Part shown: one piece after another, positions 41,577 through 59,708 of the stretch
Layout: each line of letters begins with the position of its first letter
Position numbering within the stretch: position 1 is the first letter of the stretch
Assembly: GCF_028294535.1 (NCBI RefSeq)
Contig: NZ_JAQBIE010000016.1
Coordinates: forward strand, 1 to 64,000
Length of the DNA: 64,000 nucleotides
Source of the DNA: Paracoccus onchidii
GTDB lineage: Bacteria > Pseudomonadota > Alphaproteobacteria > Rhodobacterales > Rhodobacteraceae
Direction: 5' to 3'
Program-made: the position numbers and the translations under genes
The notes under the pieces: model-generated
Told to the model about the DNA's origin: nothing
The model's database searches: none
The model's input: the letters and a program-made list of their open reading frames with translations, nothing else

Positions 41577-42284
41577 TCAGATCGCTTCACGCGCCCTTTG
41601 GGACATTGCGACCTCGATATTGACGATCGCGTTCTTCAGATGCGCTATCAGGGCCTGGGATGCCACCTTTGCGTCACGTGCAAGCAAGGCATCGACGATT
41701 GCCTTGTGCTTGCGCGTTTGTCGTTCCCGGTTGGTTTGCAGTTGGGACGAGATGAACCGAGCCCGCCAGAGTCGTGTGTTGTACTGTCTGTGGGTTTCGC
41801 TGAGGGGCGGATTATGTGCCGCAGCGACGATCGAGCTGTGAAACGACATGTCGAGTTCAAAGCGCTTCATGGCGTCATCCGAATCCACACAACCGACCAT
41901 TTCGTCCTGCAGCTGAACAATCCGGGCCAGTTCGGCATCGGAGGCATGCTGACACGCCAGTTCCCCGGCCAACCCCTCCAGCGCGCCCTGGACGGACAGC
42001 CAATGCGAGAGTGTCTCAAGTGAGGGGTTTGCCACGCGCGGGCGACGGGTTTCGCTATAGTCAACCAAACCTTCCGTTTCGAGAAGGCGAATTGCGTCCC
42101 GCACCGGGGTGCGGCTGATACCAAGCAGGTCCGACAGGTCCCGCTCATTCAGCGCCAACCCGGGCGGAAGCTTTTCAAGCAAGATCAGCTGCCGTAACTT
42201 GTCCGCTGACTGTTCGGCCAGGCTCATTGGGCGCTCGGCCGAAATGTCATCGTCCAGAAGATCTTTTAGGGACATTGATTTCAT
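41577..42284 (-). CDS. GntR-family regulator, FCD subgroup (sugar-acid operon)
   Basis: 235 residues: a winged-helix N-terminus (ALNERDLSDLLGISRTPVRD, AIRLLETEGLV) and an FCD domain with metal-ligand-type residues (FELDMSFHSSIVAAA, HKAIVDALLARD). The start at 42284 has AAAGGG 8 nt before. It lies downstream of the dehydrogenase/DapA/enolase-type genes on the same strand and probably controls them and the divergent transporter operon through the dyads at 46034-46059. The effector is likely a sugar acid or keto-deoxy acid. Confidence 0.9.
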   Translation of the reverse strand: MKSMSLKDLLDDDISAERPMSLAEQSADKLRQLILLEKLPPGLALNERDLSDLLGISRTPVRDAIRLLETEGLVDYSETRRPRVANPSLETLSHWLSVQGALEGLAGELACQHASDAELARIVQLQDEMVGCVDSDDAMKRFELDMSFHSSIVAAAHNPPLSETHRQYNTRLWRARFISSQLQTNRERQTRKHKAIVDALLARDAKVASQALIAHLKNAIVNIEVAMSQRAREAI

Positions 42285-42395
42285 TCTCGTTACCCTTTCC
42301 AGAAAGGCGCGGCACGCCATTCACCGGTCAGGGAAGCCTACGTTGAAGCAACTGTAGCCTTCCCGCCGACCCGAGACAATGTGTCGGGCAGTGGT

Positions 42396-43916
42396 TCAGC
42401 CCGTCCGGTCGATCTGTTGCAGATCCGCAGGTAATAGCTGGGCCGGAATGTTCTGATAGCTGACCGGACGAAGCCAGCGCGTGATCGCCAGGGTGCCGAC
42501 CGAGGTGGCGCGCACATCCGTGCTGGCCGGGTAGGGGCCGCCATGCATCATGGCAGAACAGACCTCGACCCCGGTAGGAAAACCATTTGCAAGGATGCGC
42601 CCGGCTTTTTCCTCGAGGATCGGGAACAGCGCCTGAGCAAGTTCGATGTCTTTGTCATCCATTTGCAGGGTCGCGGTCAACTGCCCTTCCAGGCCTTCAG
42701 CCAGTTCAAGCATTTCCGCGGTATCGGTGCATTCCACGATCACGCCTGCGGCCCCAAAAACCTCGTCACGCAGTTGCGGCGTTTGCAGCCAGTCGCGCGC
42801 CGCGACCTTGAACAAGGCCGGCAAGGCGCGCCGCGCACCGACGTCTGACTGTTGGTTTTGCAACAGATCTTGCGACAAGTCGCGCAGGGTTTCGACACCG
42901 TTGCGATAGGCTGCGCAGATGCCGTCCGTCAGCATGGTTTGCGCGCCCACGGTCTTTAGTCCGTCCACCGTGGCTGCCTCGATGGTATCGCTGCCGGGTC
43001 CCTTTATGGTTATGGTCACGCCGGGATTGGTGCAGAACTGACCTGCGCCCATCGACAGGGCGGCCGCCAGTCCGGCCCCGATCTCAGCACCCCTTGCTGA
43101 AACCGCATGAGGAAGGCAGAAAACCGGATTGATCGACCCCAGCTCGCCATAAAAGGGGATCGGGTCGGGCCGAGAGGTGCAGAGATCGAAAAGTGCGCGC
43201 CCCCCCGCCAGTGAACCGGTAAAGCCGACAGCGCGGATCTGGGGGTGTTTCACCAAAGCCGTGCCGACCTCGCGACCCGAGCCTTGAACCATCTGGAACG
43301 TTGCTTTCGGCATGGCGCAGTGCGTGATGGCGCGCAGAATCGCCTGAGCGACCAGTTCAGCAGTGCCAGCATGGGCGCCATGTCCTTTCACGATCACCGG
43401 ACATCCGGCAGCCAGCGCCGAAGCCGTGTCACCGCCAGCGGTCGAAAAAGCCAGCGGGAAATTCGAAGCACCGAAGACGACGACCGGACCGATCGCACGA
43501 TGACCAAGCCTCAGATCGGGGCGGGGCAGTGGTTGGCGGTCCGGCAGCGCGGGTTCGTGACGCTGGTCCAGATAGGTGGTGTCCTCGATCAGATCGGCGA
43601 ACATGCGCAGCTGTCCGGTGGTGCGGCCGCGCTCGCCGACAAGCCGCGCTTCGGGAAGGCCGGTTTCGGCCTTCGCGGTTTTGGTTATCATGTCGCCCAG
43701 CACATCGATTTCCTGTGCGATCTGGCGCAGGAATGCGGCCCGCTTCGGGCGTGGAACGCCGGAATAGGCGCGAAAGTCGCGGCGCGCAGCCAGAGCCGCC
43801 TCGTCAATTTGGGCGGGTGTTGCCTGTGCGAATGTCTGTCCGTCGAGGTCGGCAGATGGAAGAAGATGGTCTGATCCGACCCAGCAGCCGTCGATCAGGT
43901 TTTTTCCGTTCAGCAT
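42396..43916 (-). CDS. Alpha-ketoglutarate semialdehyde dehydrogenase (2,5-dioxovalerate dehydrogenase)
   Basis: 506 residues of the KGSADH type, longer than GabD-like enzymes. Features are VFGASNFPLAFSTAGGDTAS, GFTGSLAGGRALFDL, the general-base Glu258 in FYGELGSINP and the nucleophile Cys295 in SMGAGQFCTNPG. These motifs are characteristic of the enzymes ending the oxidative pentose and hexarate pathways: they oxidise 2,5-dioxopentanoate to 2-oxoglutarate with NAD(P). The DapA-like gene 10 bp upstream would make that aldehyde. Confidence 0.92.
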   Translation of the reverse strand: MLNGKNLIDGCWVGSDHLLPSADLDGQTFAQATPAQIDEAALAARRDFRAYSGVPRPKRAAFLRQIAQEIDVLGDMITKTAKAETGLPEARLVGERGRTTGQLRMFADLIEDTTYLDQRHEPALPDRQPLPRPDLRLGHRAIGPVVVFGASNFPLAFSTAGGDTASALAAGCPVIVKGHGAHAGTAELVAQAILRAITHCAMPKATFQMVQGSGREVGTALVKHPQIRAVGFTGSLAGGRALFDLCTSRPDPIPFYGELGSINPVFCLPHAVSARGAEIGAGLAAALSMGAGQFCTNPGVTITIKGPGSDTIEAATVDGLKTVGAQTMLTDGICAAYRNGVETLRDLSQDLLQNQQSDVGARRALPALFKVAARDWLQTPQLRDEVFGAAGVIVECTDTAEMLELAEGLEGQLTATLQMDDKDIELAQALFPILEEKAGRILANGFPTGVEVCSAMMHGGPYPASTDVRATSVGTLAITRWLRPVSYQNIPAQLLPADLQQIDRTG

Positions 43917-43926
43917 TGTATTTCCT

Positions 43927-44838
43927 TTACTTTCCCCAACGCAGGACCAAAGGGTCGAGCGGTTTCAGAAGGTCGAGAAGCCGTGTCTTGATCGCGGGAT
44001 GAAGCGGCGCAATGGGATGGCGACAAGCGTCCGATCCGATGACTCCGCCCGCCACCATGGCGGCCTTGCATGATTGCCAGCCGCATTGGCGGTTTTCATG
44101 GTTGATCGCCATCGCGACCCGGCCATAGGCCGCCGTGGCTTCAGCGTGGCGCCCTGCATGGAAATGGGTCAGCACCGGCTTGATCTGATCCACGATCATG
44201 CCCGAGGTCATCGAACCGGTCGCCCCGGCATCCAGATCGGCCAGCAACGTAATCGCCTCTTCTCCGTCGAATGGGCCTTCGATCGCATCGCCGCCGGCTT
44301 CGATCAGAGCGCGAATCTTGTTGGCGGCGCGTGGGCATTCGATCTTGAACAATCGCACCTCTTCGATTTCGCGTGCCATTTTCACCAGCAGCGGCACCGA
44401 CAGGTCGACGCCGGACATCGGGGCATCCTGCACCATGATCGGAATGCCCACCTCGCCCACGGCCGCGAATTGTTCGAAGGTCTGTTCGGGCGTGCCTTTC
44501 AGCGTCGCGCCGTGATAGGGGGGCATCATCATCACGCTATGCGCGCCCAGTTCCCTGGCAAGTCGGGCACGCTGGACCGCGATTTGCGTCGCGTAATGGC
44601 TGATGGTGACGATCACCGGAACCCGTCCGGCCACATGTTCAAGGCTGAGCCGGGTCAGGATCGTGCGTTCCTCGTCCGACAACAGGAACTGTTCGGAAAA
44701 ATTGGCAAGAATGCAGATCCCATCGGCGCCCTGATCGATGAGGCAGTCCAGAACACGCTTCATCCCTTCGAGGTCAAGCGTGCCATCATCATGAAAAGGT
44801 GTGGGGGCGACGGGCCAGATACCGGAATAACGGGTCAT
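43927..44838 (-). CDS. DapA-family 2-keto-3-deoxy-sugar-acid dehydratase
   Basis: 303 residues, a class I aldolase-like barrel. The Schiff-base Lys165 is in [10 protein letters not shown]. The Tyr usually found at the end of strand 5 (YN-P motif) is replaced by [10 protein letters not shown], a change also expected in members that dehydrate 2-keto-3-deoxypentonates rather than make dihydrodipicolinate. In such pathways the enzyme converts the keto-deoxy acid to 2,5-dioxopentanoate with loss of water (or of water and CO2 for hexarates). ATGA overlap with the upstream enolase-superfamily gene shows tight coupling. Confidence 0.85.
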
Positions 44839-46010
44839 TCGAAAATCTCGAAATTATGGAGATGCTTGTCAGAGATGCTGATGCCCAGACCAGGCAGATT
44901 GTCATCCAGTTGCAGGTAGCCATCGACCGCATCGGGATCGCCGTCGAAGATATAGTAGAACAGCTCATTGCCGACCTCGACGTCGAAGACGGGGAAATAT
45001 TCTGAAATCATGCAATTCGCATTGGCCATGGTCAGGTGATAGTTATGCATCTGGCCCGCATGCGGAATCACCGGCAACTGGAATGCTTCGGCAATGGCGT
45101 TGATCTTTTGCGCTGCGGTAATGCCGCCGACCCGGTTGGTGTCGTATTGCAAGACGCTTACGGCTTTTTTCTCGATCAGGTCCTTGCAGCCGATGACGGA
45201 AAATTCATGCTCACCGCCGGAAATCGGCACGATGTTCATGGCGTTCAGTTCGCGATAGCCCTCGACGTCATCTGCGATGACGGGTTCTTCCAGCCAGCGG
45301 GGATCGTATTTTGCCAGCTTGGGCAGCATCCTCTTGGTATAGTCGAGATTCCAGCCCATGTAGCATTCAAGCATGAGATCCGCGTCATAGCCGACCACTT
45401 CGCGAATGGCTTCGACCCGCTTGAGGTTTTCGCGCATTCCTTCGGGACCATGTTTGGGTCCCCAGCCAAAGCGCATCTTGTAGGCGTTGTGCCCGGCGGA
45501 TTTGGCCTCTTCGGCCTCGCGCTGCATCGCCTCGATCGGACCGGCGTAGAGTTTTGAGTAATAGACCGGGATTTTTTCCTTGGTGCGTCCCCCAAGAAGC
45601 TTGAAAACGGGCTTGCCGGTCAGTTTCCCCATCAGGTCCCAGATCGCGATGTCGATAGCGGAAATCGCGGTCATGCCGATCCCCTTGCGCCCCCAGGCAT
45701 GGGTGCGGCGATACATCTTTTCCCAGATATAGGCATGGTCGAAAGGGTCTTCGCCGATGACCAGGGGTGCGAACCAGTCGTCAATGGCCTTCTTGACGAC
45801 AGTGGGGGCAAGTGCGGCGTTGCCGATGCCAATGGTGCCGTCCTCGCATTCCACCTCGCAGGTCAGCCACTGGTGGAAGCGAAATGACGCCATCGCATCT
45901 CCCTTCATCCACAATGCGTCCGAGGCGTTGGTGCAGAAATTGCCGGTGGGCGGCACGGTGGGGCCGGTCCAATTCCACACCCGGGTGCGGATCGACTTGA
46001 TCTTGGTCAT
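44835..46010 (-). CDS. Enolase-superfamily sugar-acid dehydratase (L-rhamnonate/L-lyxonate dehydratase-like)
   Basis: 391 residues of the rhamnonate-dehydratase branch of the mandelate racemase subgroup. Shared landmarks are [44 protein letters not shown] and PHAGQMHN (catalytic His317). Metal ligands appear to be Glu215 (LMLECYMGW), Glu241 or 242 and Glu267; Escherichia coli RhmD has Asp at the first of these positions. It should dehydrate an acid sugar to a 2-keto-3-deoxy acid for the DapA-like enzyme. A pentonate such as L-lyxonate fits the downstream KGSADH. Start is uncertain among 46010, 46013 and 46022; GGAG is best spaced for 46010. Confidence 0.85.
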
Positions 46011-46033
46011 CATGGTCTCCATTCTCTGCTTGA

Positions 46034-46047
46034 TTTGGAATACCAAA
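46034..46047. promoter_or_regulatory. TTTGG-N4-CCAAA dyad (candidate GntR operator)
   Basis: A perfect 5-bp dyad with centre AATA, 24 bp upstream of the enolase-superfamily start and 85 bp before the divergent tctC start. Close to the TTGGTATACCAA type of site bound by FCD-subgroup GntR proteins. Confidence 0.5.
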
Positions 46048-46049
46048 AA

Positions 46050-46059
46050 CCGTATACCG
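46050..46059. promoter_or_regulatory. Second GTATAC dyad in the same divergent promoter
   Basis: CCGTATACCG has a GTATAC core three bases after the TTTGG/CCAAA dyad. Two adjacent sites between the enzyme and transporter operons fit dual control by the GntR protein at 41577-42284. Confidence 0.4.
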
Positions 46060-46131
46060 AAATACATGTCAAGGACAAGCTGGTCGAGGCAGTGGCCTTC
46101 GTGACCAACATTCCCGAGGAGGAGAGGGTAA

Positions 46132-47091
46132 ATGTACAGATTGATGGACGGCATGAAGTTAGTGGCCGCCGTTGCGATCGTATCCTGTGGCGCCAGTCAG
46201 GTGGTGGCAGACGATTTTCCGTCAGGCCCGATCGAAGTGATCAACAATTCGAAGCCGGGTGGGGGGAGCGACATTTTCCTGAGATTCGCCACCGAGGCCG
46301 CAGCGGAAATTCTCGATACCAGCATCATTCACCTGTCCAAGACAGGCGGGGTCGCAACCAACACGCTGAAATATGTTCAGTCGAAGCCCGCCGATGGGCA
46401 TACCCTGTTCATCGTGAATGCCGGGACCGCTTTGACCATGATGAGCGGTTCCATCGATATGGATCAGGATGACATCATCCCCCTGGTGCGTGGCACAGTC
46501 GAACCGGAATTCATTGTCGTTCAGGCCGGACGCTTTGAGGGCGGTGCGGATTTCATCGAATACGCAAAGTCCAATCCGATCAAGCAGGCCGGCACCAAGG
46601 TTGGCGGCAATGCACATGTCAACGCCCTGATCATGAAAAACACCATCGGCATGGCGCAGCAAACCTATGTGCCGTTCGAAAAATCCGGCGAGATTGTCAT
46701 CAACGTCATCAACGGAAATGTTGATGTCGCCCTTTTGAATCACGAGGAATTCGCGTCACAGGCAGCCGCCGGACAAGTCGATGTCCTGGCCGTCCTGCTT
46801 CCGGAACGTCTCGAAAACATGCCGGAAGTCCCGACCGGCCACGAGATTGGCCTGCCGATGGATTCGCCGCAGATCCGTGGCCTGGGCGTTCGGGCGGGCA
46901 CACCGGAAGAGGTGGTAGACAAGCTGGAGGCGGCTTTGCTCGAGTCGATGAAGTCCGACACCTATGTCGAATATCTCAAAGGCTCGGGGCAGGATCTGAC
47001 CAGCGTCACGGGCCGCGATGCCTTCGGCGCGGAATTCAAGACGATGTATGACAATTATCAATCCATCAAGAAAGAGCTTCTGGGCGGCTAG
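46132..47091 (+). CDS. tctC: TTT-family periplasmic solute-binding protein (TctC/Bug), second system
   Basis: 319 residues with a Sec signal peptide ([20 protein letters not shown], cleavage near VVA-DD). The mature part resembles Bug receptors: [74 protein letters not shown]. The sequence differs clearly from the tctC at 11295. GAGGAGAGG precedes the ATG. It opens the operon tctC-tctB-tctA-pdxA-like-sulfatase-sulfatase-sulP, so its ligand is probably the sulfated organic acid inferred for the block. Confidence 0.9.
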
Positions 47092-47107
47092 TCCACCCTA
47101 GGTCCAC

Positions 47108-47130
47108 CCCGCCCCTGCATATGGGGCGGG
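47108..47130 (+). terminator. Stem-loop between the second tctC and tctB
   Basis: A perfect 8-bp GC stem, CCCGCCCC (47108-47115) with GGGGCGGG (47123-47130), and a 7-nt loop, starting 16 bp after the tctC stop. It has no T-run, so partial termination or mRNA 3'-end protection is more likely than full termination. Confidence 0.65.
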
Positions 47131-47159
47131 CCAATGATGCGACATGAAGGAGCCTTTGG

Positions 47160-47636
47160 ATGTCCACCCGCGAAGAAAGCCTGCGCAAGACGGATCGCAC
47201 GCTGTTTCTTGAATCGATTGCCGTCATGGCCTTTGCCGCCACGATGTATGGCGTGACCCATACGTTCCGGGAAGTGCCGCCAATACTGGCCCAGGGAATT
47301 CAGCCAACGGCCTTTCCCCGCGCCATTCTTATCATCATGTTCCTGCTGGCCGCGACCCAGGCCTTTCAGGCCCTGAAACGCCCTGCCACGGAAGCCAGCA
47401 GTTTTGGCAAGAAAAAGCCAGTGCCGCCGCTGGTTTTCCTGACGATTGTACTGCTGATCGCTTTTGCGATGCTGATGCCGATTGTCGGCACCTTCCCCGC
47501 GATGGCCGTTTTCCTGCCGGGCCTTGCCGTCCTGTGGGGTGAGCGCCGCTGGATCCTGATGGGGCTGAGCTTTGCCGGCTTTATCGGTTTTGCCTACGGG
47601 CTCTTCGTTCTCATCATGCAAGTTCCCTTGCCCTAA
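47160..47636 (+). CDS. tctB: TTT-family small membrane subunit TctB, second system
   Basis: 158 residues, four hydrophobic helices, TctB layout with AQGIQPTAFPRAILIIMFLL and the C-terminal helix SFAGFIGFAYGLFVLIMQVP. GAAGGAG precedes the ATG. It works with the TctA encoded 14 bp downstream. Confidence 0.88.
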   Translation: MSTREESLRKTDRTLFLESIAVMAFAATMYGVTHTFREVPPILAQGIQPTAFPRAILIIMFLLAATQAFQALKRPATEASSFGKKKPVPPLVFLTIVLLIAFAMLMPIVGTFPAMAVFLPGLAVLWGERRWILMGLSFAGFIGFAYGLFVLIMQVPLP

Positions 47637-47650
47637 CGAGGTCAGATCGA

Positions 47651-49162
47651 ATGGACTCCCTTGTTCTTGTGGCTCAGTTTCTGACTGACCCATCCAACCT
47701 CATGATCATTGCGGTCGGGACTCTGGTCGGATTGATCGTGGGTGCCCTGCCGGGCCTTGGCTCGGTTGTTCTGATTGCGCTGATGCTTCCATTTGTCGTG
47801 CGCATGGATCCCACAACCGGCATCGCACTTTGTGCCATCGTTTACTGCGCCACAACTTACGGCGGTTCACTGACGGCGATCCTGATCAATACGCCGGGAA
47901 CGCCGGCTGCGGCGATGACGACCTTTGATGGTTTTCCCCTTGCCCAGAAAGGTCAGGCTGGGCGTGCGCTGGGAATTGCAACTTTCTCCAGTGCGATCGG
48001 CGGCATCCTTGGCATTCTGGTGATGATCGTCGCGACGCCGCTGCTGGCAAAGCTGGCGTATCAGTTCGGTCCGGCCGAGTTCTTTGCCCTCGCGGTCTTT
48101 GGCATGTCGATGTTGGCCTCGATCAGTGGCGCTTCGATGATCAAGAACTTTATTGGTGGCGCGTTCGGGCTTTTGCTGGCGACCATCGGCACCGATCTGA
48201 CCACGGGTGTCGAGCGTTTCACCTTCGGTCAGCCCGATCTTTATGAGGGAATTGCCGTGGTGCAGATCATGATCGGCATCTTCGCAGGTGGCGAATTGCT
48301 GCGTCAGGCCACGCAAACCAAGGTCAAGCGCGAACTGATCGCCGAGGGCGTGACCCGTCTGCCATCCTGGCAGGATTTTCGCCGGATATGGAAAACCGTG
48401 CTGCGTTCGACCGGTATTGGAACCGTCATCGGGATCCTGCCAGCCGAAGGCGGGAAGGTTGCGGCCATGATCGCCTATAATGAGGAATACCGCTGGTCGA
48501 AGAACAAGGACGAGTTCGGAAAAGGTGCGATCGAAGGCATCGCCGCGCCGGAAGCTGCGAATAACGCTGCGACAGGCGGCACCATGGTCCCAACACTTGC
48601 CTTGGGCATTCCCGGAGGCGGATCGACGGCCATTATCCTGACCGCGATGCTGATTCTGGGGTTGCGCCCCGGACCGCAGCTTTTCGTAGAACAGCCAGAT
48701 CTGCTGGCCGGTATATTCGGGGCCATGCTGGGCGCGAATGTCTGCTTTCTGATCTATGGACTGCTTGGCGCGAAGCTGTTCAGCCGCATCACCCTGATCC
48801 CGACGACGATCCTGTGGCCCTGCGTTATCGCCCTGGCTTGCCTCGGGGCCTATAGCCTGCAGCAAAGCATGTTTGATATCGGCGTCATGATCTTCTTCGC
48901 GGTGCTTGGATTCTTCCTGAACCGTCATGGCTATGCGCCGGCTCCGATCATCATGGGGCTGATCCTTGGCGAATTGATCGAAACCTCGCTGAAGCAATCC
49001 TACCTGATCTATGACGGCAACCTGCTGGCCATTCTGGGGCAACCCATCGCCTTGGCGTTCCTGCTTTTGTCGCTGTTGGGTATCTGTGGCCCGCTGATCG
49101 CAAAGGCATTGGGGGCATTCCGTGACAAGCAGGCCAGCCTGCTGACCGGAAACGACGAATAG
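47651..49162 (+). CDS. tctA: TTT-family large membrane subunit TctA, second system
   Basis: 503 residues, 10-12 helices. Signature segments are VGLIVGALPGLGSVVLIALM, YGGSLTAILINTPGTPAAAM and GAIEGIAAPEAANNAATGGT. The glycine-rich GILPAEGGKVAAMIAY corresponds to the second family motif. It is the translocator of the second TTT system, followed 14 bp later by the PdxA-like gene. It is distantly related to the TctA at 9202, so the two systems probably serve different acids. Confidence 0.92.
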   Translation: MDSLVLVAQFLTDPSNLMIIAVGTLVGLIVGALPGLGSVVLIALMLPFVVRMDPTTGIALCAIVYCATTYGGSLTAILINTPGTPAAAMTTFDGFPLAQKGQAGRALGIATFSSAIGGILGILVMIVATPLLAKLAYQFGPAEFFALAVFGMSMLASISGASMIKNFIGGAFGLLLATIGTDLTTGVERFTFGQPDLYEGIAVVQIMIGIFAGGELLRQATQTKVKRELIAEGVTRLPSWQDFRRIWKTVLRSTGIGTVIGILPAEGGKVAAMIAYNEEYRWSKNKDEFGKGAIEGIAAPEAANNAATGGTMVPTLALGIPGGGSTAIILTAMLILGLRPGPQLFVEQPDLLAGIFGAMLGANVCFLIYGLLGAKLFSRITLIPTTILWPCVIALACLGAYSLQQSMFDIGVMIFFAVLGFFLNRHGYAPAPIIMGLILGELIETSLKQSYLIYDGNLLAILGQPIALAFLLLSLLGICGPLIAKALGAFRDKQASLLTGNDE

Positions 49163-49176
49163 AAACGAGATATATC

Positions 49177-50208
49177 ATGACCAACAAACCTGTCATCATG
49201 TCCACCCTGGGCGATGCCGGCGGCATTGGCCCCGAATTGGTGGCAAGAAGCCTGGATAAACCCGAAATTACCGAGGGCGCGAAGCGTGTCATCGTGGGGA
49301 ATTCCCGCGTGTTCGACATGGGCCGGGAAGTGGCTGGGACGACTTTGGACATCAAGCGCTTCACGGATTTCGATGAGGCTGTGGCCGCGCCCGACCCAGT
49401 GGTTTTCCACCACATCGACGGCGCAGAATTCGACAAGATCCCCTATGGCGTTTCCACCGCCGCGGCTGGTGAAGATGTGTATCGCGTGGGATGCTATGGG
49501 GCCGACCTTGCCCGGGCGGGCAAGATTGATGCCTTTGTCTGGTCCCCGATCAACAAGGCATCCATGCACAAGGCGGGGCATCACTTCGAAGGCTACAAGG
49601 CCGCCATCGCGGACTATATGGGGTTCCGGGGGCTCTCGACCGAGATCAACACCATCGGTCACATGTGGACCTGCCGGGTCACCTCGCATATTCCCATCAG
49701 CGCCGTGGCCGGAGAGATGGATCCGAAACGGATTGAAGATGTCCTGATCTATTTCGAACGTGAATTGCGGCGGTTTGGCTATGCCAGCCCCAGGATCGCG
49801 GTGTCGGGTCTGAACCCCCATAATGGCGACGAAGGGGCCTTTGGCCGCGAAGAGATCGACATCATCCGTCCGCTGGTTGAACGGGTGAAGGCCCGTGGCC
49901 TGAATGTGGAAGGTCCATTCCCGCCGGATACGATTTTCCTGACGGTGCAGGAACAGGGCTTTCTCGGCGTTCTGTCGATGTATCACGATCAATGCCAGAT
50001 CGCGACCAAGCTGCTGGGTTTCGATGATGGGGTGACCTATTTCGGCGGCTTGCCGCATATCCTTGCAACGCCTGCACACGGCACCGCCTATGACATTGCG
50101 GGGCAGGGCAAAGCACGCCCGAATGCCAGTCAGAAGGCGCATGAACTTGCTTGCCGAGCAGCGCGGATCGCCAAGGGGCTGCCGCACAAGAAGGACGTCA
50201 CCGCATGA
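49177..50208 (+). CDS. PdxA-family dehydrogenase (catabolic PdxA2-like)
   Basis: 343 residues of the 4-hydroxythreonine-4-phosphate dehydrogenase family. The three metal histidines are present (His171 in VTSHIP, His215 in GLNPHNGDEG, His270 in SMYHDQ). The substrate-phosphate segment, usually GHTE, reads AGHHFEGYKA, so the ligand may not be the standard phosphate. PdxA relatives in catabolic operons act on 4-phospho-threonate/erythronate or on dihydrodiols of aromatic acids. No DUF1537 kinase is nearby, which argues against the threonate route. It oxidises a 3-hydroxy acid, possibly with decarboxylation. The stop overlaps the next start (ATGA). Confidence 0.85.
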   Translation: MTNKPVIMSTLGDAGGIGPELVARSLDKPEITEGAKRVIVGNSRVFDMGREVAGTTLDIKRFTDFDEAVAAPDPVVFHHIDGAEFDKIPYGVSTAAAGEDVYRVGCYGADLARAGKIDAFVWSPINKASMHKAGHHFEGYKAAIADYMGFRGLSTEINTIGHMWTCRVTSHIPISAVAGEMDPKRIEDVLIYFERELRRFGYASPRIAVSGLNPHNGDEGAFGREEIDIIRPLVERVKARGLNVEGPFPPDTIFLTVQEQGFLGVLSMYHDQCQIATKLLGFDDGVTYFGGLPHILATPAHGTAYDIAGQGKARPNASQKAHELACRAARIAKGLPHKKDVTA

Positions 50209-51692
50209 GCAAGAAACCCAACATCCTTCTGATCGAAGCCGACCAGCTGGCTGCCTTTGTCCTGTCGATGTATCGCCCCGAGGCCCAGGCGATCACGCCC
50301 AATCTCGACCGGCTGGCAGCCGATGGTGTCGTCTTCGAGAATGCCTATTCCAATTCGCCACTATGCTGTCCGTCGCGTGCGTCGAAGTTCACCGGTCGAT
50401 TGCCTTCCAGTCATGAAGTATGGGGCAACGGGGCCGAGTTCCGGTCCGAACTGCCGACGATGATGCATTTCCTGCGCTCGGCGGGATATCGTTGTGTGGT
50501 GTCCGGGAAATGTCATTTCATCGGTGCGGACCAGCTGCACGGATTTGACAAGCGCTTGACAACCGACATGTATCCGTCGGGTTTCGACTGGACCATTGAC
50601 TGGAAGCTGGGGCCCGTTCACCGCGAGGGAACCTCGACCCGCAAACTGGGTGTCAGCGGGTTGTGCAAGACCAACAACCAGATTCTCTATGATGCCGAGG
50701 TTCAGTATCGGGCGGTCGAGTTCCTGCGCTATGAGGCGCTGAACAAGCCTGAAAGCCCGTTCTTTCTGCATGTGTCCTATACGCAGCCCCACGAGGCCTA
50801 TCAGTCGCTTCCCGAATATTGGGATCGCTATGACGGGATCGAGATCGAAATGCCCCGCATTCCCGAGGATGACGACCCGCATCCGACGACGGCCTGGCTG
50901 AAAATCCACCACGGGATCGATCAGTTCCCCCCTGACGCAGAGACCATCCGTCTGTCGCGACGCGCCTATTATGCGATGATCTCGCATCTGGACGACTATC
51001 TGGGCGAATTGATCGCCGAGCTGAAGCATCTTGGGCTATATGACGATACGGTCATTGTCTTTACCTCGGATCACGGCGACATGCTGGGTGAACGCGGCAT
51101 GTGGTTCAAGCGCAGCTTCTACCAGGGTTCGTTGCAGGTGCCGATGATCGTCCACGGGCCGGGTATCGCGGCTGGCCGCCGGTCCCAGAATGTAACGCTG
51201 GCGGATCTTTGCCCGACGCTTGCCGAACTGGGCGGCGCCAAGGCGGCCTGCGACACGCATGGCAGTTCGGACAGCCAGAGCTTTCTGGGTCTGCTGATGG
51301 CGGATAGCAACAGTGTCAAGGACGAGGCGATTGCGGAATATTACGGTCCGGGTGTCATCGAGCCCTGGCTTGCGATCCGGAAGGGCGACTGGAAATATGT
51401 CTGGACGCGCAATCATCCCGACCTTCTTTACAATATGAAGGACGACCCCGACGAACAGACCGATCTTTCCGATGATCCCGCCCTTGCAGAGATTCGGGAC
51501 GTGTTGAGACAGCGATTGTTGGCGCGCTATGACGTCGAGGCGGTGACCCAACGTGCCGCGGTCAGCAAGACCACGCGCGCCTTTCTTCAGGAAACCCTTT
51601 CTACCAATGAAAGCTATGCCTGGGATTACGAGCCTCGGTTTGACGCGACACGGCGTTATGTGCGCGGCGTGAACAGCCCTTCAACTGCCTGA
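50205..51692 (+). CDS. Cytoplasmic sulfatase, choline-sulfatase-like
   Basis: 495 residues of the type I, formylglycine-dependent sulfatases. Cys54 in SPLCCPSRAS is the residue converted to formylglycine; metal and active-site segments are NILLIEADQL, VSGKCHFIGADQLHGF and VFTSDHGDMLGERGMWFKRS. The pattern DQLHGFDKRLTTDMYPSGFD and the C-terminal WDYEPRFDATRRYVRG are close to BetC choline sulfatase. There is no signal peptide, so it acts inside the cell on an imported sulfate ester. No betaine pathway genes are nearby, so the substrate is more likely a sulfated acid brought in by the TTT system. It overlaps the PdxA-like stop. Confidence 0.9.
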   Translation: MSKKPNILLIEADQLAAFVLSMYRPEAQAITPNLDRLAADGVVFENAYSNSPLCCPSRASKFTGRLPSSHEVWGNGAEFRSELPTMMHFLRSAGYRCVVSGKCHFIGADQLHGFDKRLTTDMYPSGFDWTIDWKLGPVHREGTSTRKLGVSGLCKTNNQILYDAEVQYRAVEFLRYEALNKPESPFFLHVSYTQPHEAYQSLPEYWDRYDGIEIEMPRIPEDDDPHPTTAWLKIHHGIDQFPPDAETIRLSRRAYYAMISHLDDYLGELIAELKHLGLYDDTVIVFTSDHGDMLGERGMWFKRSFYQGSLQVPMIVHGPGIAAGRRSQNVTLADLCPTLAELGGAKAACDTHGSSDSQSFLGLLMADSNSVKDEAIAEYYGPGVIEPWLAIRKGDWKYVWTRNHPDLLYNMKDDPDEQTDLSDDPALAEIRDVLRQRLLARYDVEAVTQRAAVSKTTRAFLQETLSTNESYAWDYEPRFDATRRYVRGVNSPSTA

Positions 51693-51699
51693 GGATGTC

Positions 51700-53202
51700 A
51701 TGACCAAAAAACCGAACATTCTGATGATCTATGCCGATCAGATGCGGTATGACTGTGCCGGGTTCTCGGGGAATCCGGATGTCAAGACGCCGAACATGGA
51801 CCGGCTGGCAGCCGAAGGGGTGTGTTTCGACGAAGCCTTTACCTCTTACCCGTTGTGCACGCCGTTTCGCGGGTCATTGCTGACCGGGAAATACGCGCAC
51901 AAGGTCGGGTTGTATTCCAATCATTTCCCGATAAATACCGATCAACCGTCTTTGGCGACCAGCCTGAATGCCGTGGGATATGAATCCGGTTATATCGGCA
52001 AGTGGCATCTGTATGGCGGACCAAAACCCGGTTTCGTTCCGCCCGGGCCGGATCGGATGGGATTTGATCACTTTGTCGGATATAATCGCGGCCATTATTA
52101 CATGGATGCAATTTTCTACCGCGATACCGACCAGCCCTATACCTGCAAACGCTTCGAGCCGGACTTTCAGACCGATCACACCATCGAATTCATGGACCGG
52201 GTGCACAAGGCCGGCGACGGACCGTTCTTTGCCTATCTTTGCTTTGGGCCGCCGCATTTCCCGATGGATATGCCAGAGCATTGGCGCAGGATGTATGATC
52301 CCGAACGGATCACCCTGCCCAAAGGCACGCCGAACCCAGAATTGCAGAAGCGGCGCGCGCAAGAGCGCACGAAACTGGATTTTGACGGCGATGACCGCTT
52401 CGGTGAACGATCAAAGACCGACAAGCTGGCCGGGCAGGATCCCGAAGTTGAAAACGAAGCCCAGATACGCAAATTCGTCGCTGAATATTACGGCATGATA
52501 TCCAATGTGGATTTCAATGTCGGGCGGTTGTTGAACTGGCTTGATGCCGCTGGTCTGGCAGAGGATACGTTGGTCATTCTGTTCTCGGATCATGGTGACA
52601 TGCTGGGTCAGCACGGCAGCTATTGCGGTATCAAGCGGCAAGCCTATCGCGCCTCGGCGCAAGTTCCCCTGTTGGTCCGATACCCAAGGCGATTTGCGCA
52701 GGGCAGGCGTGTCGGGTCGCTGGTCGATGTTGCCGTAGATACCATGCCGACATTGCTGGAAGCCTGCGGCGTTGCCATACCCGATGGCGTACAGGGCAAC
52801 AGCTACCTTTCCCTTCTGGATGGCCCGTGCGATGCCCCGCCGGTCCGCGATCACGTGCAGTTCGAATTGATGAAGGCTGCATTCGGCGGACGCAGCGAAC
52901 GGCATGTCAAACCTGAACGAGGCATTCGCACACGGGAATGGCTGTATGTTCGCAAGAAGGATCGACCACTTTATCTTTTTGACCAGCTCAATGATCCTGA
53001 CGAACAGGTAAATCTTGTGAACGATCCGGCCTATGCAGACATCCAGAAGGCACTGGATGCGCGCGTATTGATGAATATGGCAGAAACCGGAGATGCCTGG
53101 GATCTGGAAATGAGCTTTCCTCCGCCCGGTTTCATGAACCACGAACAAGCACATGATTACCTTGTGAATGTCGTGAAACCTTCTGCCATCGAAGTGCCCT
53201 GA
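51700..53202 (+). CDS. Second cytoplasmic type I sulfatase
   Basis: 500 residues. The formylglycine site is Cys53 in PLCTPFRGSLLTGKYAHKVG (CxPxR kept, with Phe where Ser or Ala is common). Other landmarks are MIYADQMRYD, SGYIGKWHLYGG and ILFSDHGDMLGQHG. It starts 7 bp after the first sulfatase and also lacks a signal peptide. It belongs to another sulfatase subgroup, which suggests that either two sulfate groups of one substrate or two related substrates are handled. No formylglycine-generating enzyme gene is in the window; it must be encoded elsewhere. Confidence 0.9.
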   Translation: MTKKPNILMIYADQMRYDCAGFSGNPDVKTPNMDRLAAEGVCFDEAFTSYPLCTPFRGSLLTGKYAHKVGLYSNHFPINTDQPSLATSLNAVGYESGYIGKWHLYGGPKPGFVPPGPDRMGFDHFVGYNRGHYYMDAIFYRDTDQPYTCKRFEPDFQTDHTIEFMDRVHKAGDGPFFAYLCFGPPHFPMDMPEHWRRMYDPERITLPKGTPNPELQKRRAQERTKLDFDGDDRFGERSKTDKLAGQDPEVENEAQIRKFVAEYYGMISNVDFNVGRLLNWLDAAGLAEDTLVILFSDHGDMLGQHGSYCGIKRQAYRASAQVPLLVRYPRRFAQGRRVGSLVDVAVDTMPTLLEACGVAIPDGVQGNSYLSLLDGPCDAPPVRDHVQFELMKAAFGGRSERHVKPERGIRTREWLYVRKKDRPLYLFDQLNDPDEQVNLVNDPAYADIQKALDARVLMNMAETGDAWDLEMSFPPPGFMNHEQAHDYLVNVVKPSAIEVP

Positions 53203-53252
53203 AGGCGCACTTTTGTGCCCGGCGCCGACGCGTGCCGGGCTTGGGAATGCCG

Positions 53253-55001
53253 ATGAGACAACTTGCCAAGTATTTCGCCTTGCCCCGGCCCTGGTTTCGC
53301 AAGGTCAACGCGCATACGCTGCGTGCGGATGCCACTGCGGGGCTGACCAACGCGGCTGTGGTTCTGCCGCAAGGGGTGGCCTTTGCCGTGATCGCCGGGC
53401 TGCCGCCGCAATACGGTTTGTTCACCGCGATGATCCCGTCGCTGGTCGCGGCGTTGTTCGGGTCTTCGATGGTCATGGTGTCGGGGCCGACCACGGCGAT
53501 TTCCGCCGTGCTGTTTGCCTCGCTGTCGCAATTCGCGCCTGCTGGAACACCAGCCTATATCCAGATGGCGCTGGTGCTTACCGTGATGGTGGGGGCAATT
53601 CAGCTTGCGGCGGGCCTGGCGCGGCTTGGTGCGCTGATCGGGTTCGTATCGCATTCCGTGATCGTCGGTTTCACGGCGGCTGCGGCGGTTCTGATCGCGG
53701 TGTCCCAGCTGGCTCCTGCCCTTGGGGTAACGGTCGAGAAAGGTGGCGGGGTACTCGAGCGGTTCCTGCATCTGATCGATGGTATCGGCGGGGCGAACGG
53801 ATATGCGGTTCTGCTGGCGGGCGTGACCTTGGCAACGCTGATTGCCGTGCAGCGCTGGAACAGGCGGCTTCCATCCTATCTGATTGCGCTTGGCGTCGGA
53901 TCACTATGTGGCTGGTGGCTTGATGCTTCCGCGCAGGGGATAGCCATGTTTGCCGCCTTGCCCATTCTGCTGCCGACGATGCATCTTCCCTCGGTCGAGA
54001 TGTCGGCCATTGCCGAACTGACCCCTGCCGCCGTAGCGATCGCCTTTGTTGCGTTGCTAGAGGCCATGTCCATCGGACGCGACTTTGCACATCGGCGGGG
54101 CGAGCCCTACGATTCCAACCAAGAGATCATGGGGCAGGGATTGTCCAATCTGTTTGGCGGCATGTTCCAGTGCTATGCGGGGTCAGGCTCCTTCACGCGT
54201 TCGGCGCTGAACGCCGAAAGCGGTGCGCAAACGCCGATGTCGTCTATCTTTGCGGCCTGTTTCCTGTTCGTGATGATGCTTGGACTGGCGCCATTCGTGG
54301 CCTATGTGCCTGTGCCCGTCGTGGCGGGGATCATTCTTTTCGTGGCCTATCGCTTGGTCGATATGGCTGAAATCCGGCATATTCTGGGGGTGCGAACCAG
54401 TGATCGGCTGGTGTTGCTGGTGACTTTTCTTGCCGGCATATCGATCGAACTGGAATTTGCGATTGTCGCGGGTGTTCTGACGTCGCTGTTCGCGTTTCTG
54501 CGCAAAAGTGCAACGCCTCTGGTTGCGGTTCTCGCGCCTTCCGAAGAACAGGGACATCGCAGCCTGAGAGGGGCCATCCGCTATAACCTTTCGCAATGCC
54601 CACAGATCGCGATTCTTCGCATTGAAGGCCCGATCTATTTCGCGTCTCTGGAAGCCATCGAAGACAGGTTCCAGCAGATCGAACAGCGATTTGGCGCGCG
54701 CAGCAACCTTGTGCTTTACCTGCGTGGCGTGGGGCTGATCGATCTGGCGGGCGCGGATTATCTGATAAGCCTGATCAGACGGCATCGCGCACGCGGGGGG
54801 AATGTGCGTATCGTGGCAACCTATGAAGGCGTTGTTTCGACACTTCGTCGAACACATGTACTGGAGGTTCTGGGCGCAGAGAATTTGGTCATGAGCAAAA
54901 ACTCGGCCATCTCTGCCTGTGTCCGGGACGCTGACCCCGAGATTTGCCGCAACTGCACGAGCCGCGTTTTTCAGGAATGTCGACAGCCGACCGGCGTCTA
55001 G
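53253..55001 (+). CDS. SulP-family anion transporter with STAS domain
   Basis: 582 residues. About 10-12 helices with SulP segments DATAGLTNAAVVLPQGVAFA, GLPPQYGLFTAMIPSLVAAL and GSGSFTRSALNAESGAQTPM, then a C-terminal STAS domain (about 445-560, LRIEGPIYFASLEAIEDRFQ and IDLAGADYLISLIRRHRARG). ATG 53253 is chosen over upstream GTG/ATG because GGGA is best spaced. Next to two sulfatases it most likely moves sulfate across the inner membrane, either exporting the excess set free or balancing charge; uptake of another anion is possible. It probably ends the operon that begins at 46132. Confidence 0.88.
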   Translation: MRQLAKYFALPRPWFRKVNAHTLRADATAGLTNAAVVLPQGVAFAVIAGLPPQYGLFTAMIPSLVAALFGSSMVMVSGPTTAISAVLFASLSQFAPAGTPAYIQMALVLTVMVGAIQLAAGLARLGALIGFVSHSVIVGFTAAAAVLIAVSQLAPALGVTVEKGGGVLERFLHLIDGIGGANGYAVLLAGVTLATLIAVQRWNRRLPSYLIALGVGSLCGWWLDASAQGIAMFAALPILLPTMHLPSVEMSAIAELTPAAVAIAFVALLEAMSIGRDFAHRRGEPYDSNQEIMGQGLSNLFGGMFQCYAGSGSFTRSALNAESGAQTPMSSIFAACFLFVMMLGLAPFVAYVPVPVVAGIILFVAYRLVDMAEIRHILGVRTSDRLVLLVTFLAGISIELEFAIVAGVLTSLFAFLRKSATPLVAVLAPSEEQGHRSLRGAIRYNLSQCPQIAILRIEGPIYFASLEAIEDRFQQIEQRFGARSNLVLYLRGVGLIDLAGADYLISLIRRHRARGGNVRIVATYEGVVSTLRRTHVLEVLGAENLVMSKNSAISACVRDADPEICRNCTSRVFQECRQPTGV

Positions 55002-55073: not shown

Positions 55074-55994
55074 TCACGATGGGCGCTTGTCTTCGGCGGT
55101 GTCTTTCGTCGTCTGGCGCTGGCGCAACCATTCCCGCAGGATAAAAGAGTGTCGATCCTGGCTCTTGCTTTCAGAGCTGACCATCCAGATCGCCTCGCCG
55201 GACCGAACAGGGGGACCAAACGGCATATAGAGTGATCCATTGCTCAATTCTGTTGTTACATAATGGCGTGGAACCACGGCAATGCCCATGCCTTCGACCG
55301 CGGCCTGAAGCAGAAGGGCGCTGTGCGAGAACCGGTTCCCCTGGATGGTTCCCGTGTAGGGAATGCCCGAGATCCGTAACCAGGTCAGCCACAGGCTGGG
55401 TCGGCTGGCATTTTGCAGCGATGGGATCTGCGAAAAATCGAGCGTTCCGGGTGCCGCGTCCGGCGCAAGCAGCTTGGGGCTGGCCACAACGGCCAGCTCT
55501 TCCTCGAACAGTTTGGTCGCGCGGCCGTGCCATTGACCCGAACCGCGCATGATCGCGATGTCGACGGCACTCGATTCGACATCGGTTGTTTCATCTATGG
55601 TGGTCAGCTCGAAAGGGATGTCGGGATAGCGCAGCCGGAAACTGCGCATGCGGGGAATAAGCCATGTGGACGCCAATGTGGGCGTGGAGCCGACGATCAC
55701 CCACCCTCCGCTGCGCCGCCCCCTGACAGCATCAATCGATGCTTCTTCCAGGCGGGCAAGGACCTGAACGACATCTTCGTAATATGCGGCGCCGATCTTG
55801 GTCAGAACAAGATGTGATCCCGCGCGTTCGAACAGTCGCAGGTTCAGGAATTGTTCGAGTCCGTGAACATGACGACTGACACCGCTTTGCGTCATACCCA
55901 GTTCATTTGCGGCTTTCGTAAAGTTCAAAAGGCGCGCGGCAGCTTCGAATGCCTGCAATGCCGAAAGCGAGGGAAGGAAGCGTCGAGTGGGCAT
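55074..55994 (-). CDS. LysR-family regulator (divergent to the amino-acid ABC operon)
   Basis: 306 residues with the LysR N-terminal HTH (SALQAFEAAARLLNFTKAAN, ELGMTQSGVSRHVHGLEQFL) and a GcvA-like effector domain (TPTLASTWLIPRMRSFRLRY). It faces the binding-protein gene at 56194 with a 199-bp gap holding the dyad at 56121-56134. It likely activates the ABC/enzyme operon in response to the transported compound. It converges with the SulP gene. Confidence 0.9.
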   Translation of the reverse strand: MPTRRFLPSLSALQAFEAAARLLNFTKAANELGMTQSGVSRHVHGLEQFLNLRLFERAGSHLVLTKIGAAYYEDVVQVLARLEEASIDAVRGRRSGGWVIVGSTPTLASTWLIPRMRSFRLRYPDIPFELTTIDETTDVESSAVDIAIMRGSGQWHGRATKLFEEELAVVASPKLLAPDAAPGTLDFSQIPSLQNASRPSLWLTWLRISGIPYTGTIQGNRFSHSALLLQAAVEGMGIAVVPRHYVTTELSNGSLYMPFGPPVRSGEAIWMVSSESKSQDRHSFILREWLRQRQTTKDTAEDKRPS

Positions 55995-56120
55995 GACTAA
56001 AACTCATCGTTAAGGCATCGTTCATGGGGTGGATCAGCGGCTGAAATCCAGCGAAGATAAGTTCAACAGGATCGCAGCTTGTGAATGGTATCCCGAATTT
56101 CGGCTCTATCATGAGCATGC

Positions 56121-56134
56121 TGCATCTTGATGCA
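56121..56134. promoter_or_regulatory. TGCATC-TT-GATGCA dyad (candidate LysR site)
   Basis: A perfect 6-bp dyad with 2-bp centre in the divergent promoter region, 60 bp before the binding-protein start. It is the strongest symmetry in this gap and so the best candidate for the adjacent LysR protein, though the classical T-N11-A spacing is not met exactly. Confidence 0.4.
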
Positions 56135-56193
56135 ACGACAAAAAATGAGCGGATCGGGCAAACCGGACCGTATATCGCCAACAGGAGATTGCC

Positions 56194-57018: not shown

Positions 57019-57025
57019 CACGAAA

Positions 57026-57043
57026 GGACCGGCACGCCGGTCC
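57026..57043 (+). terminator. Stem-loop between the amino-acid binding-protein and permease genes
   Basis: GGACCGG and CCGGTCC (57026-57032 with 57037-57043) form a perfect 7-bp stem with a 4-nt loop, 7 bp after the stop codon. As in the other uptake operons it separates the binding-protein gene from the membrane gene. Confidence 0.6.
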
Positions 57044-57063
57044 GTTCCAAGACGGAGACGTTC

Positions 57064-58490: not shown

Positions 58491-58499
58491 GGCCAGACG

Positions 58500-59639: not shown

Positions 59640-59708
59640 ACTTGCCTGATCAACAGAAGGAATACGGCCACGGGTTTCGCCTGCGGCCGACGGGAAAGGA
59701 TTGACCTG

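What the first reader, a model, noticed from the sequence alone, without database searches (positions are those of the whole stretch)
44835..55001. Candidate pathway: import of a sulfated organic acid, cytoplasmic desulfation and conversion to 2-oxoglutarate
One divergent locus joins a TTT transporter, a PdxA-like dehydrogenase, two type I sulfatases without signal peptides and a SulP transporter with, on the other strand, a rhamnonate/lyxonate-type dehydratase, a DapA-like dehydratase and KGSADH. Because the sulfatases are cytoplasmic, their substrate must be imported intact. The TTT system gives a route, SulP can handle the freed sulfate, and the three minus-strand enzymes are the known end of acid-sugar pathways. 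The combination with two different sulfatases and a kinase-less PdxA relative is not a pathway I know.
Basis: partly seen in the sequence, partly recalled or inferred. Interest (0 to 1): 0.75.

Follow-up and report, generated by a model that had tools for sequence, protein, structure and literature searches.

The report
Sulfated-acid route into vitamin C breakdown
A bacterium, probably a Paracoccus, carries two back-to-back gene sets, apparently under one switch, that look built to import a sulfate-bearing acid, strip off the sulfate and feed the rest into the known route by which bacteria break down vitamin C; the starting compound is still unknown.

Summary
The genes are real and in the stated order; DapA and KGSADH lie just left of the given range. 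The minus operon matches the known L-lyxonate pathway: dehydratase (808 bits to PDB 3STP, recalled as characterised LyxD), keto-acid dehydratase, KGSADH, GntR. The plus operon recurs: TctCBA-PdxA-SulfA with GntR in 6 of 6 closest PdxA relatives. Each of those 6 genomes holds one LyxD, against 25 of 345 family genomes. One 21-base operator, unique in this genome, lies between the operons and before TctC in 7 of 7 module loci, so coregulation is predicted. The kinase-less PdxA has a likely role: PdxA lies beside LyxD in 22 of 25 LyxD genomes, as in the L-ascorbate pathway (recalled from Stack 2020), where it decarboxylates 2-carboxy-L-lyxonate to L-lyxonate. The window genome shows no YncE or b561 of that pathway, so ascorbate 2-sulfate is unlikely; a sulfated carboxy-pentonate-like acid fits better. 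SulfA lacks the choline clamp. Against: LyxD is adjacent and intact in only 2 of 7 loci, and 4 of 6 other genomes have a separate TTT-LyxD-PdxA cluster. Substrate and all activities are untested. New variant of a known kind.

The parts
41577..42320 (-). GntR/FCD transcriptional regulator, last gene of the minus operon
   Evidence: Pfam FCD and GntR; ortholog 57-71% identical in 6 of 6 closest module loci
42396..43916 (-). aldehyde dehydrogenase, probable 2-oxoglutarate semialdehyde dehydrogenase (KGSADH), by context
   Evidence: Aldedh, no NCBIfam cut-off reached; 572 bits to PDB 3V4C; relatives of 58-60% beside LyxD-DapA in L109, L110, L112
43927..44838 (-). DapA-family 2-keto-3-deoxy-pentonate dehydratase
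   Evidence: 372 bits to L-2-keto-3-deoxyarabonate dehydratase 3FKK/7C0C
44835..46013 (-). enolase-superfamily dehydratase, probable L-lyxonate dehydratase (LyxD); true start about 46013/46010
   Evidence: 833, 808 and 802 bits to PDB 3SSZ, 3STP, 3SQS; KxR motif kept; start codons
46038..46058 (.). predicted GntR operator GAATACCAAAAACCGTATACC in the divergent promoter region
   Evidence: conserved in 7 of 7 module loci with up to 2 mismatches; only match in this genome at up to 3 mismatches
46132..47091 (+). TctC, binding protein of a tripartite tricarboxylate transporter
   Evidence: Pfam TctC
47160..47636 (+). TctB, small membrane subunit
   Evidence: Pfam TctB
47651..49162 (+). TctA, large membrane subunit
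   Evidence: Pfam TctA; 77-89% in the 6 closest module loci
49177..50208 (+). PdxA-family enzyme, probable NAD-dependent decarboxylase yielding L-lyxonate
   Evidence: Pfam PdxA; own clade with the sulfatase-linked loci; EGYK motif in 63 of 64 and loss of phosphate-type motifs
50205..51692 (+). SulfA, formylglycine-type sulfatase (CCPSR), cytoplasmic, choline clamp missing
   Evidence: Sulfatase; NCBIfam choline-sulfatase 487 bits against a cut-off of 433; clamp analysis
51700..53202 (+). SulfB, formylglycine-type sulfatase (CTPFR), cytoplasmic
   Evidence: Sulfatase and SGSH_C; CTPFR in the 40 best homologs of 40 examined
53232..55001 (+). SulP-family anion transporter
   Evidence: TIGR00815 330 bits, below its cut-off of 380; present also in Phaeobacter J2-8, there apparently in two frames

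Best explanation
The two divergent operons form one catabolic locus under one GntR regulator and one operator. TctCBA imports a sulfated organic acid intact. SulfA and SulfB, activated to formylglycine enzymes by the genome's one FGE, remove sulfate in the cytoplasm. The PdxA relative acts as in the L-ascorbate pathway: it oxidises the beta-hydroxyl, decarboxylates and re-reduces, turning 2-carboxy-L-lyxonate (2-carboxy-L-threo-pentonate) or a close relative into L-lyxonate. LyxD, the DapA-like dehydratase and KGSADH then give 2-oxoglutarate. SulP, or TauE in Phaeobacter J2-8, may export sulfate. Shown here: gene content, conservation, co-occurrence, shared operator, residue changes. Inferred: every activity, the order of desulfation and decarboxylation, and the substrate, for which a sulfate ester of the carboxy-pentonate that forms when vitamin C decays is my best guess.
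For: LyxD-type dehydratase 808 bits to 3STP (recalled as the characterised Labrenzia LyxD). DapA 372 bits to L-2-keto-3-deoxyarabonate dehydratase. TctCBA-PdxA-SulfA plus GntR in 6 of 6 closest PdxA loci; SulfA seen in none of the other 74 of the 80 loci, some of which are cut short by contig ends. One LyxD in each of the 6 other module genomes against 25 of 345 family genomes. PdxA within about 5 kb of LyxD in 22 of 25 LyxD genomes. One operator between the operons, unique in this genome, in 7 of 7 module loci. Variovorax SRS16 has PdxA-LyxD-DapA with cytochrome b561, SMP-30 lactonase and YncE, matching the ascorbate pathway as I recall it. Phaeobacter J2-8 has b561, YncE and a lactonase near the module, b561 behind a second operator-like site. 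In the window genome and Phaeobacter J2-8 the only other PdxA relative at E 1e-20 has about 36% identity. FGE in 8 of 8 genomes. Choline clamp absent in 84 of 84 SulfA homologs with catalytic residues kept.
Against: No activity is measured. LyxD is adjacent and intact in only 2 of 7 module loci (window and L023; remnants in L022). Four of the 6 other genomes (G062, G064, G065, G066) have a separate TTT-LyxD-PdxA cluster without sulfatases, and G061 holds a second PdxA relative at 42% on another contig, so there the module's own PdxA need not feed LyxD. The clade next to the window-type PdxA also holds many PdxA not beside LyxD. In Phaeobacter J2-8, the only relative with the whole locus, TctC and SulP each match in two pieces, as TctC does in L025: decay or sequence error. 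The second operator-like site there has 2 mismatches, and the reversed control pattern also gave 2 sites in the 8 genomes, so it may be chance. No sulfated carboxy-pentonate is known to me as a natural product. The substrate loop of the window-type PdxA differs (EGYK against EDE/DEL). Stack 2020 and Ghasempur 2014 were not held; reaction details are recalled. The SulfA association in the 345-genome sample rests on 4 genomes, one (G267) with a 60% relative in another context; two others (G275, G080) are the same genomes as G062 and G065.
Confidence: 0.5

Rival explanations
1. The module degrades L-ascorbate 2-sulfate itself: TTT imports it, a sulfatase frees ascorbate, and the normal ascorbate route follows.
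For: Phaeobacter J2-8 has the module plus b561, lactonase and YncE, with b561 behind an operator-like site. Ascorbic acid 2-sulfate is named as a vitamin C metabolite in an abstract listed (PMC11322087; listing only).
Against: With the Variovorax YncE as query, no match at E 1e-5 in the window genome; of the 7 module genomes only G063 has a strong one, G065 and G066 weak partial ones. b561 is in 2 of 7 module genomes, not in the window genome. Without the rearrangement step ascorbate cannot reach L-lyxonate by the known route.
Confidence: 0.1
2. Two independent loci side by side: an L-lyxonate operon and a TTT/PdxA/sulfatase operon for an unrelated sulfated acid or for sulfur scavenging.
For: In 5 of 6 relatives the intact LyxD lies on another contig, in 4 of them with its own TTT and PdxA. 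TTT plus sulfatase clusters without PdxA exist.
Against: One operator between the two operons; LyxD in 6 of 6 other module genomes; full linkage in Phaeobacter J2-8 and LyxD/KGSADH remnants in L022.
Confidence: 0.2
3. The substrate is another sulfated sugar acid, and PdxA performs an ordinary oxidative decarboxylation giving a ketose or keto acid rather than L-lyxonate.
For: Window-type PdxA is a separate clade with a conserved EGYK loop where LyxD-linked enzymes have EDE/DEL. The motifs it shares with them also occur in PdxA groups not beside LyxD.
Against: In the window genome and Phaeobacter J2-8 it is the only such PdxA and sits beside LyxD.
Confidence: 0.17
4. Ordinary choline-O-sulfate or aryl sulfate utilisation, as the NCBI name 'choline-sulfatase' for SulfA suggests.
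For: SulfA passes the NCBIfam choline-sulfatase cut-off, 487 against 433 bits, and its best solved relatives are choline sulfatases.
Against: The WYHN hairpin with His145 is missing in 84 of 84 homologs and a GTS-containing, mostly basic stretch stands there (clamp residues from PMC9063841); no bet genes among the neighbours examined; the transporter family is one for carboxylates (general knowledge).
Confidence: 0.03

Closest known systems
L-ascorbate catabolic pathway of Cupriavidus necator H16 (Stack et al. 2020, JACS; PMC7059403; recalled, not held)
   Same: PdxA-family decarboxylase, LyxD, DapA-like dehydratase and KGSADH as the lower route; such gene neighbourhoods seen here in Variovorax SRS16 and Ruegeria pomeroyi
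   Different: No b561 or YncE match in the window genome; TTT and two sulfatases instead; PdxA from a different clade
L-lyxonate degradation (Ghasempur et al. 2014, Biochemistry; PMC4038344; recalled, not held)
   Same: LyxD - 2-keto-3-deoxy-L-lyxonate dehydratase - KGSADH; 808 bits to 3STP
   Different: Here joined to a transporter, PdxA and sulfatases
Choline-O-sulfatase BetC (6FNY, 6G60; PMC9063841)
   Same: Same NCBIfam model by score, same catalytic residues
   Different: Choline clamp hairpin missing; no bet genes among the neighbours examined; carboxylate-type transporter
PdxA2/DUF1537 threonate and erythronate pathways (recalled)
   Same: PdxA fold and metal histidines
   Different: No kinase gene in the locus; GHT, NIT and IRTSxDHGT motifs of the phosphate-type references are replaced

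Membership tests
L-lyxonate degradation pathway | LyxD ortholog with KxR motif | tested here: met
   808 bits to 3STP, KMR in place of KSR; that 3STP is LyxD is recalled
L-lyxonate degradation pathway | DapA-family 2-keto-3-deoxy acid dehydratase and KGSADH in the same operon | tested here: met
   the KGSADH call rests on context, no NCBIfam cut-off reached
L-lyxonate degradation pathway | enzyme activity on L-lyxonate | not testable with these tools
   needs assay
L-ascorbate catabolic pathway | PdxA-family decarboxylase linked to LyxD | tested here: met
   linked in the window, and PdxA near LyxD in 22 of 25 LyxD genomes, window included; the window type is a separate clade; activity untested
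L-ascorbate catabolic pathway | YncE/WD40-like rearrangement enzyme | tested here: not met
   no match at E 1e-5 in G000 with the Variovorax protein as query
L-ascorbate catabolic pathway | cytochrome b561 of the ascorbate cluster type | tested here: not met
   no match at E 1e-5 in G000
L-ascorbate catabolic pathway | gluconolactonase-family and amidohydrolase-family lactonases | not tested
   not searched in G000
Type I formylglycine sulfatases | CxPxR motif and metal/substrate residues | tested here: met
Type I formylglycine sulfatases | formylglycine-generating enzyme in the genome | tested here: met
   PF03781, G000:C2:76931-77752
Choline-O-sulfatase | GW-X13-WYHN choline-binding hairpin (Trp129, His145) | tested here: not met
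   Trp129 kept; His145 and the WYHN hairpin missing in 84 of 84
Threonate-type PdxA2 pathway | DUF1537 kinase beside PdxA | tested here: not met
   none among the genes of the locus

The most novel reading that the evidence does not exclude
Some bacteria own a dedicated route for a sulfated branched acid derived from vitamin C (a sulfate ester of 2-carboxy-L-threo-pentonate), an unrecognised pool of organic sulfur; its PdxA carries a conserved lysine (EGYK) in the substrate loop that may hold the sulfate, so decarboxylation could even precede desulfation.
Probability: 0.2. Interest if true: 0.8.

Novelty: new variant of a known kind. Interest (0 to 1): 0.6.

Why it matters
It would put a sulfate-removing front end on the vitamin C breakdown route, give a testable function to a discrete sulfatase family now named 'choline-sulfatase' and to a discrete PdxA clade, and point to a sulfated acid in nature that, as far as I know, nobody has looked for. 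The locus also offers one operator and one binding protein with which to find the substrate.

Tried and rejected
Rejected: choline-O-sulfate (clamp missing); ascorbate 2-sulfate as the general substrate (no YncE or b561 match in the window genome); a threonate-like phosphate pathway (no kinase in the locus, phosphate motifs lost). I worked through hexaric acids as PdxA substrates in my head: only L-glucarate or L-mannarate would give L-lyxonate, which I judged unlikely in nature.

Led nowhere: no SulfB match at E 1e-80 in 72,556 plasmid records; SulfA matches in 175 plasmid records are all under 60% identity; no Rfam family and no tRNA in the window. Paper searches (several lists capped) showed no paper on a sulfatase-lyxonate pathway. 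One paper, PMC10444878 on SAR202 bacteria, holds both words; its passages report a nearly complete ascorbate pathway and 18 sulfatase-like proteins in one genome but do not join them. I read passages of PMC10444878, PMC11066805, PMC9063841 and PMC6225978, and of other papers only listings. Structure prediction was not run.

Limits: gene calls in relatives are mechanical (GC-frame scoring, which missed the PdxA of L111 on its own); MAG contigs may be misassembled; the 345-genome searches scored only the best 4 to 6 candidates per genome; the PdxA tree is a quick one with long stems; no genuine choline sulfatase other than that of Sinorhizobium was aligned. Contig-length matching is only a proxy for linkage: 19 of 63 window-type PdxA share a contig length with SulfA and 22 of 63 with SulfA or SulfB, against 2 of 56 of the next PdxA type.
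Full report
Place and organism. The window lies on contig C16 of a 4.08 Mb, 83-contig genome (G000). A same-genus genome (G008) has a contig of exactly the length of Paracoccus albus plasmid p1 with the same genes, so I take the source to be a Paracoccus.

Anatomy. Minus operon: dehydratase 44835-46013, DapA-like 43927-44838, aldehyde dehydrogenase 42396-43916, GntR/FCD 41577-42320. Plus operon: TctC, TctB, TctA, PdxA, SulfA, SulfB, SulP, 46132-55001, with PdxA and SulfA overlapping by 4 bp. The dehydratase scores 833, 808 and 802 bits to the solved proteins 3SSZ, 3STP and 3SQS. I recall 3STP as the Labrenzia aggregata L-lyxonate dehydratase of Ghasempur et al. 2014; that paper was not held, and its title was seen only in the reference list of PMC10444878. 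The DapA relative scores 372 bits to L-2-keto-3-deoxyarabonate dehydratase and the aldehyde dehydrogenase 572 bits to 3V4C. None of these, nor PdxA, reaches an NCBIfam equivalog cut-off.

Conservation. A scan of genome contigs with PdxA kept 80 loci. In the 6 closest (56-74% identity: Marinovum, a Rhodobacteraceae MAG, Phaeobacter J2-8, a Tepidamorphus MAG, an Albidovulum MAG, a Rhodobacter MAG) TctC-TctB-TctA-PdxA-SulfA with GntR is kept in 6 of 6. SulfB follows directly in 4, lies beyond GntR in 1 and is missing from the locus in 1. SulP is in 1, apparently in two frames. LyxD is adjacent and intact in 1 (Phaeobacter), with LyxD and KGSADH remnants in L022. TctC matches in two pieces in L023 and L025. 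SulfA was seen in none of the other 74 loci, some of them cut short; of the 47 loci L027-L073, 33 carry a LyxD relative near PdxA, mostly in Burkholderiales and mostly with DapA and a lone TctC. SulfA and window-type PdxA look like discrete families: 84 near-full-length SulfA proteins, the window's included, down to 57% identity, then 49%; 64 PdxA, the window's included, down to 50%, then 46%. Of the 63 other PdxA, 19 share an exact contig length with a SulfA homolog, among them an Opitutaceae pair.

Co-occurrence. Each of the 6 other module genomes has exactly one LyxD match at E 1e-60, of 74-87% identity. In 345 family genomes, about one per genus, LyxD occurs in 25 and SulfA in 4; all 4 have LyxD. 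Leaving out the window genome, 3 of 3 against 24 of 344 has a hypergeometric chance of about 3 in 10,000 (my arithmetic). Two of the three (G275, G080) are the same genomes as G062 and G065. The third, G267, carries a 60% SulfA relative (2 TGA in the aligned stretch; an open frame of 497 residues) beside an aldehyde dehydrogenase relative and, by eye, an alcohol dehydrogenase, without TTT or PdxA. So the strict module count is 2 of 2 (chance about 5 in 1,000). From the coordinates, PdxA lies within about 5 kb of LyxD in 22 of 25 LyxD genomes; exceptions are G290, G309 and G380. Among 36 congeners none has a window-type PdxA (best 41%).

What PdxA does. Variovorax SRS16 carries LysR-TctC-PdxA-LyxD-DapA, then cytochrome b561, an ABC transporter, an SMP-30 lactonase and a YncE protein. 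Ruegeria pomeroyi has TRAP, a 320-residue YncE homolog, PdxA, LyxD, DapA, aldehyde dehydrogenase and SMP-30. This is close to the gene set that I recall from the abstract of Stack et al. 2020: b561, gluconolactonase, a WD40-like benzilic acid rearrangement enzyme, an amidohydrolase, and a PdxA relative that decarboxylates 2-carboxy-L-lyxonate with catalytic NAD to L-lyxonate. The paper was not held, so that these proteins are its orthologs is inference. A PdxA without a kinase beside LyxD is then expected. The sulfatase-linked PdxA (7 distinct) are one clade (SH-aLRT 100) next to a clade that holds the LyxD-linked ones and many others (quick tree, long stems). In the motifs all of these lack the GHT, NIT and IRTSxDHGT motifs of the phosphate-type references and share TPAHGTA and W(T/N)xR(V/I)(T/S)SH. 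They differ in one loop: EGYK in 63 of 64 window-type against EDE or DEL/DEM in 50 of 56 of the next type, 1 of which has EGYK. That GHT, NIT and the R of IRTS touch the substrate in E. coli PdxA is recalled. In the window genome and in Phaeobacter J2-8 the only other PdxA relative at E 1e-20 has about 36% identity, presumably the vitamin B6 enzyme, so if any PdxA serves LyxD there it is the window type. In G062, G064, G065 and G066 a LyxD-type PdxA lies near LyxD, and G061 has one on another contig, which weakens the argument for those.

Regulation. The sequence GnATACCAAAAACCGTATACC, two half-sites, lies between the operons at 46038-46058 and before TctC in 7 of 7 module loci with up to two mismatches. 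Searched with up to 3 mismatches in 8 genomes it gives 8 sites in 7 genomes, none in G008, which has only a LyxD-type PdxA; the reversed control gives 2 sites. Seven sites are the module promoters. The eighth, with 2 mismatches, in Phaeobacter J2-8, lies about 75 bp before a b561 gene that is 51% identical to that of Variovorax (Pfam b561 model 22.3 bits, just under its cut-off of 23), followed by a TauE exporter; YncE and a PF10282 lactonase lie between it and the module. Given the control, one such site could be chance; its place makes me think not. It would tie the module to the ascorbate route in that genome.

Why not ascorbate sulfate. YncE (Variovorax query) gives no match in the window genome, a strong one only in G063 and weak partial ones in G065 and G066; b561 is found in G063 and G064 of the module genomes. 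The lactonases were not searched. The imported acid should therefore enter after the rearrangement. Carboxy-pentonates form chemically: PMC6225978 (passages) reports 2-carboxy-L-threo-pentonate among the products of diketogulonate with H2O2 and states that 2-carboxy-L-xylonate and 2-carboxy-L-lyxonate are synonyms; PMC11066805 (passage) says that such branched products slowly lose a carboxyl to give L-lyxonate and L-xylonate. A free environmental pool is thus plausible; a sulfated one is my inference.

Sulfatases. SulfA passes the choline-sulfatase model, and public sources name many of its homologs so. But PMC9063841 (passages) gives a GW-X13-WYHN hairpin with Trp129 and His145 as the choline clamp. 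In 84 of 84 homologs Trp129 and Tyr123 are kept, catalytic residues too apart from gaps in a few truncated rows, while WYHN is gone and a GTS stretch stands there; 71 of 84 carry the motif [HYF]RxG[TS]SxxK[LM], against 1 of 36 more distant ones, which lack WYHN as well. That is consistent with an anionic substrate. HMMER and MAFFT place the gap differently. SulfB has CTPFR in 40 of 40 homologs examined. One FGE is present. The genome has 18 sulfatase matches in all.

Conclusion. The locus is best read as a sulfate-bearing entry into the lower L-ascorbate/L-lyxonate route. The lower route is known; the TTT-PdxA-SulfA-SulfB front end with its own regulator was not found described in the held library by the searches. 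The substrate and all activities remain to be tested.

Noticed in passing
window 55074-62824: Separate neighbouring locus: GcvA-like LysR, amino-acid-type ABC transporter, muconate-cycloisomerase-like enolase (58500-59639), D-amino-acid dehydrogenase-like oxidase (59709-61076) and acetolactate-synthase-like TPP enzyme (61073-62824); possibly a second acid or amino acid pathway.
   Followed up: no
L129 8109-11999 (with L022 1-3886) and L141 728-7433: Further TTT transporters next to cytoplasmic-type sulfatases but without PdxA, beside the main module in two genomes: a recurrent TTT-sulfatase theme, perhaps for other sulfated acids.
   Followed up: partly
L110, L111, L113, L114, L117, L131: Second TTT cluster without sulfatases (TctA 50-53% to the window's) with LyxD and PdxA, mostly also DapA and at times GntR or KGSADH; may import free carboxy-pentonate or L-lyxonate-type acids.
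   Followed up: partly
SulfA homologs P0013-P0096: Many are named choline-sulfatase in public records although the choline clamp is missing in 84 of 84: probable systematic misannotation.
   Followed up: yes
L140 13038-14660: TauE-family exporter following cytochrome b561 behind an operator-like site in Phaeobacter J2-8; candidate sulfate or sulfite exporter.
   Followed up: partly
L023 6938-7886 and 14061-15841; L025 6997-7912: TctC (L023, L025) and SulP (L023) match in two pieces in different frames: decay or sequence error in these relatives.
   Followed up: no
L109/L116 (Paracoccus albus plasmid p1): TRAP-PdxA-LyxD-DapA-aldehyde dehydrogenase followed by a 4-hydroxyproline-type operon, whose known end product is also 2-oxoglutarate semialdehyde.
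   Followed up: no
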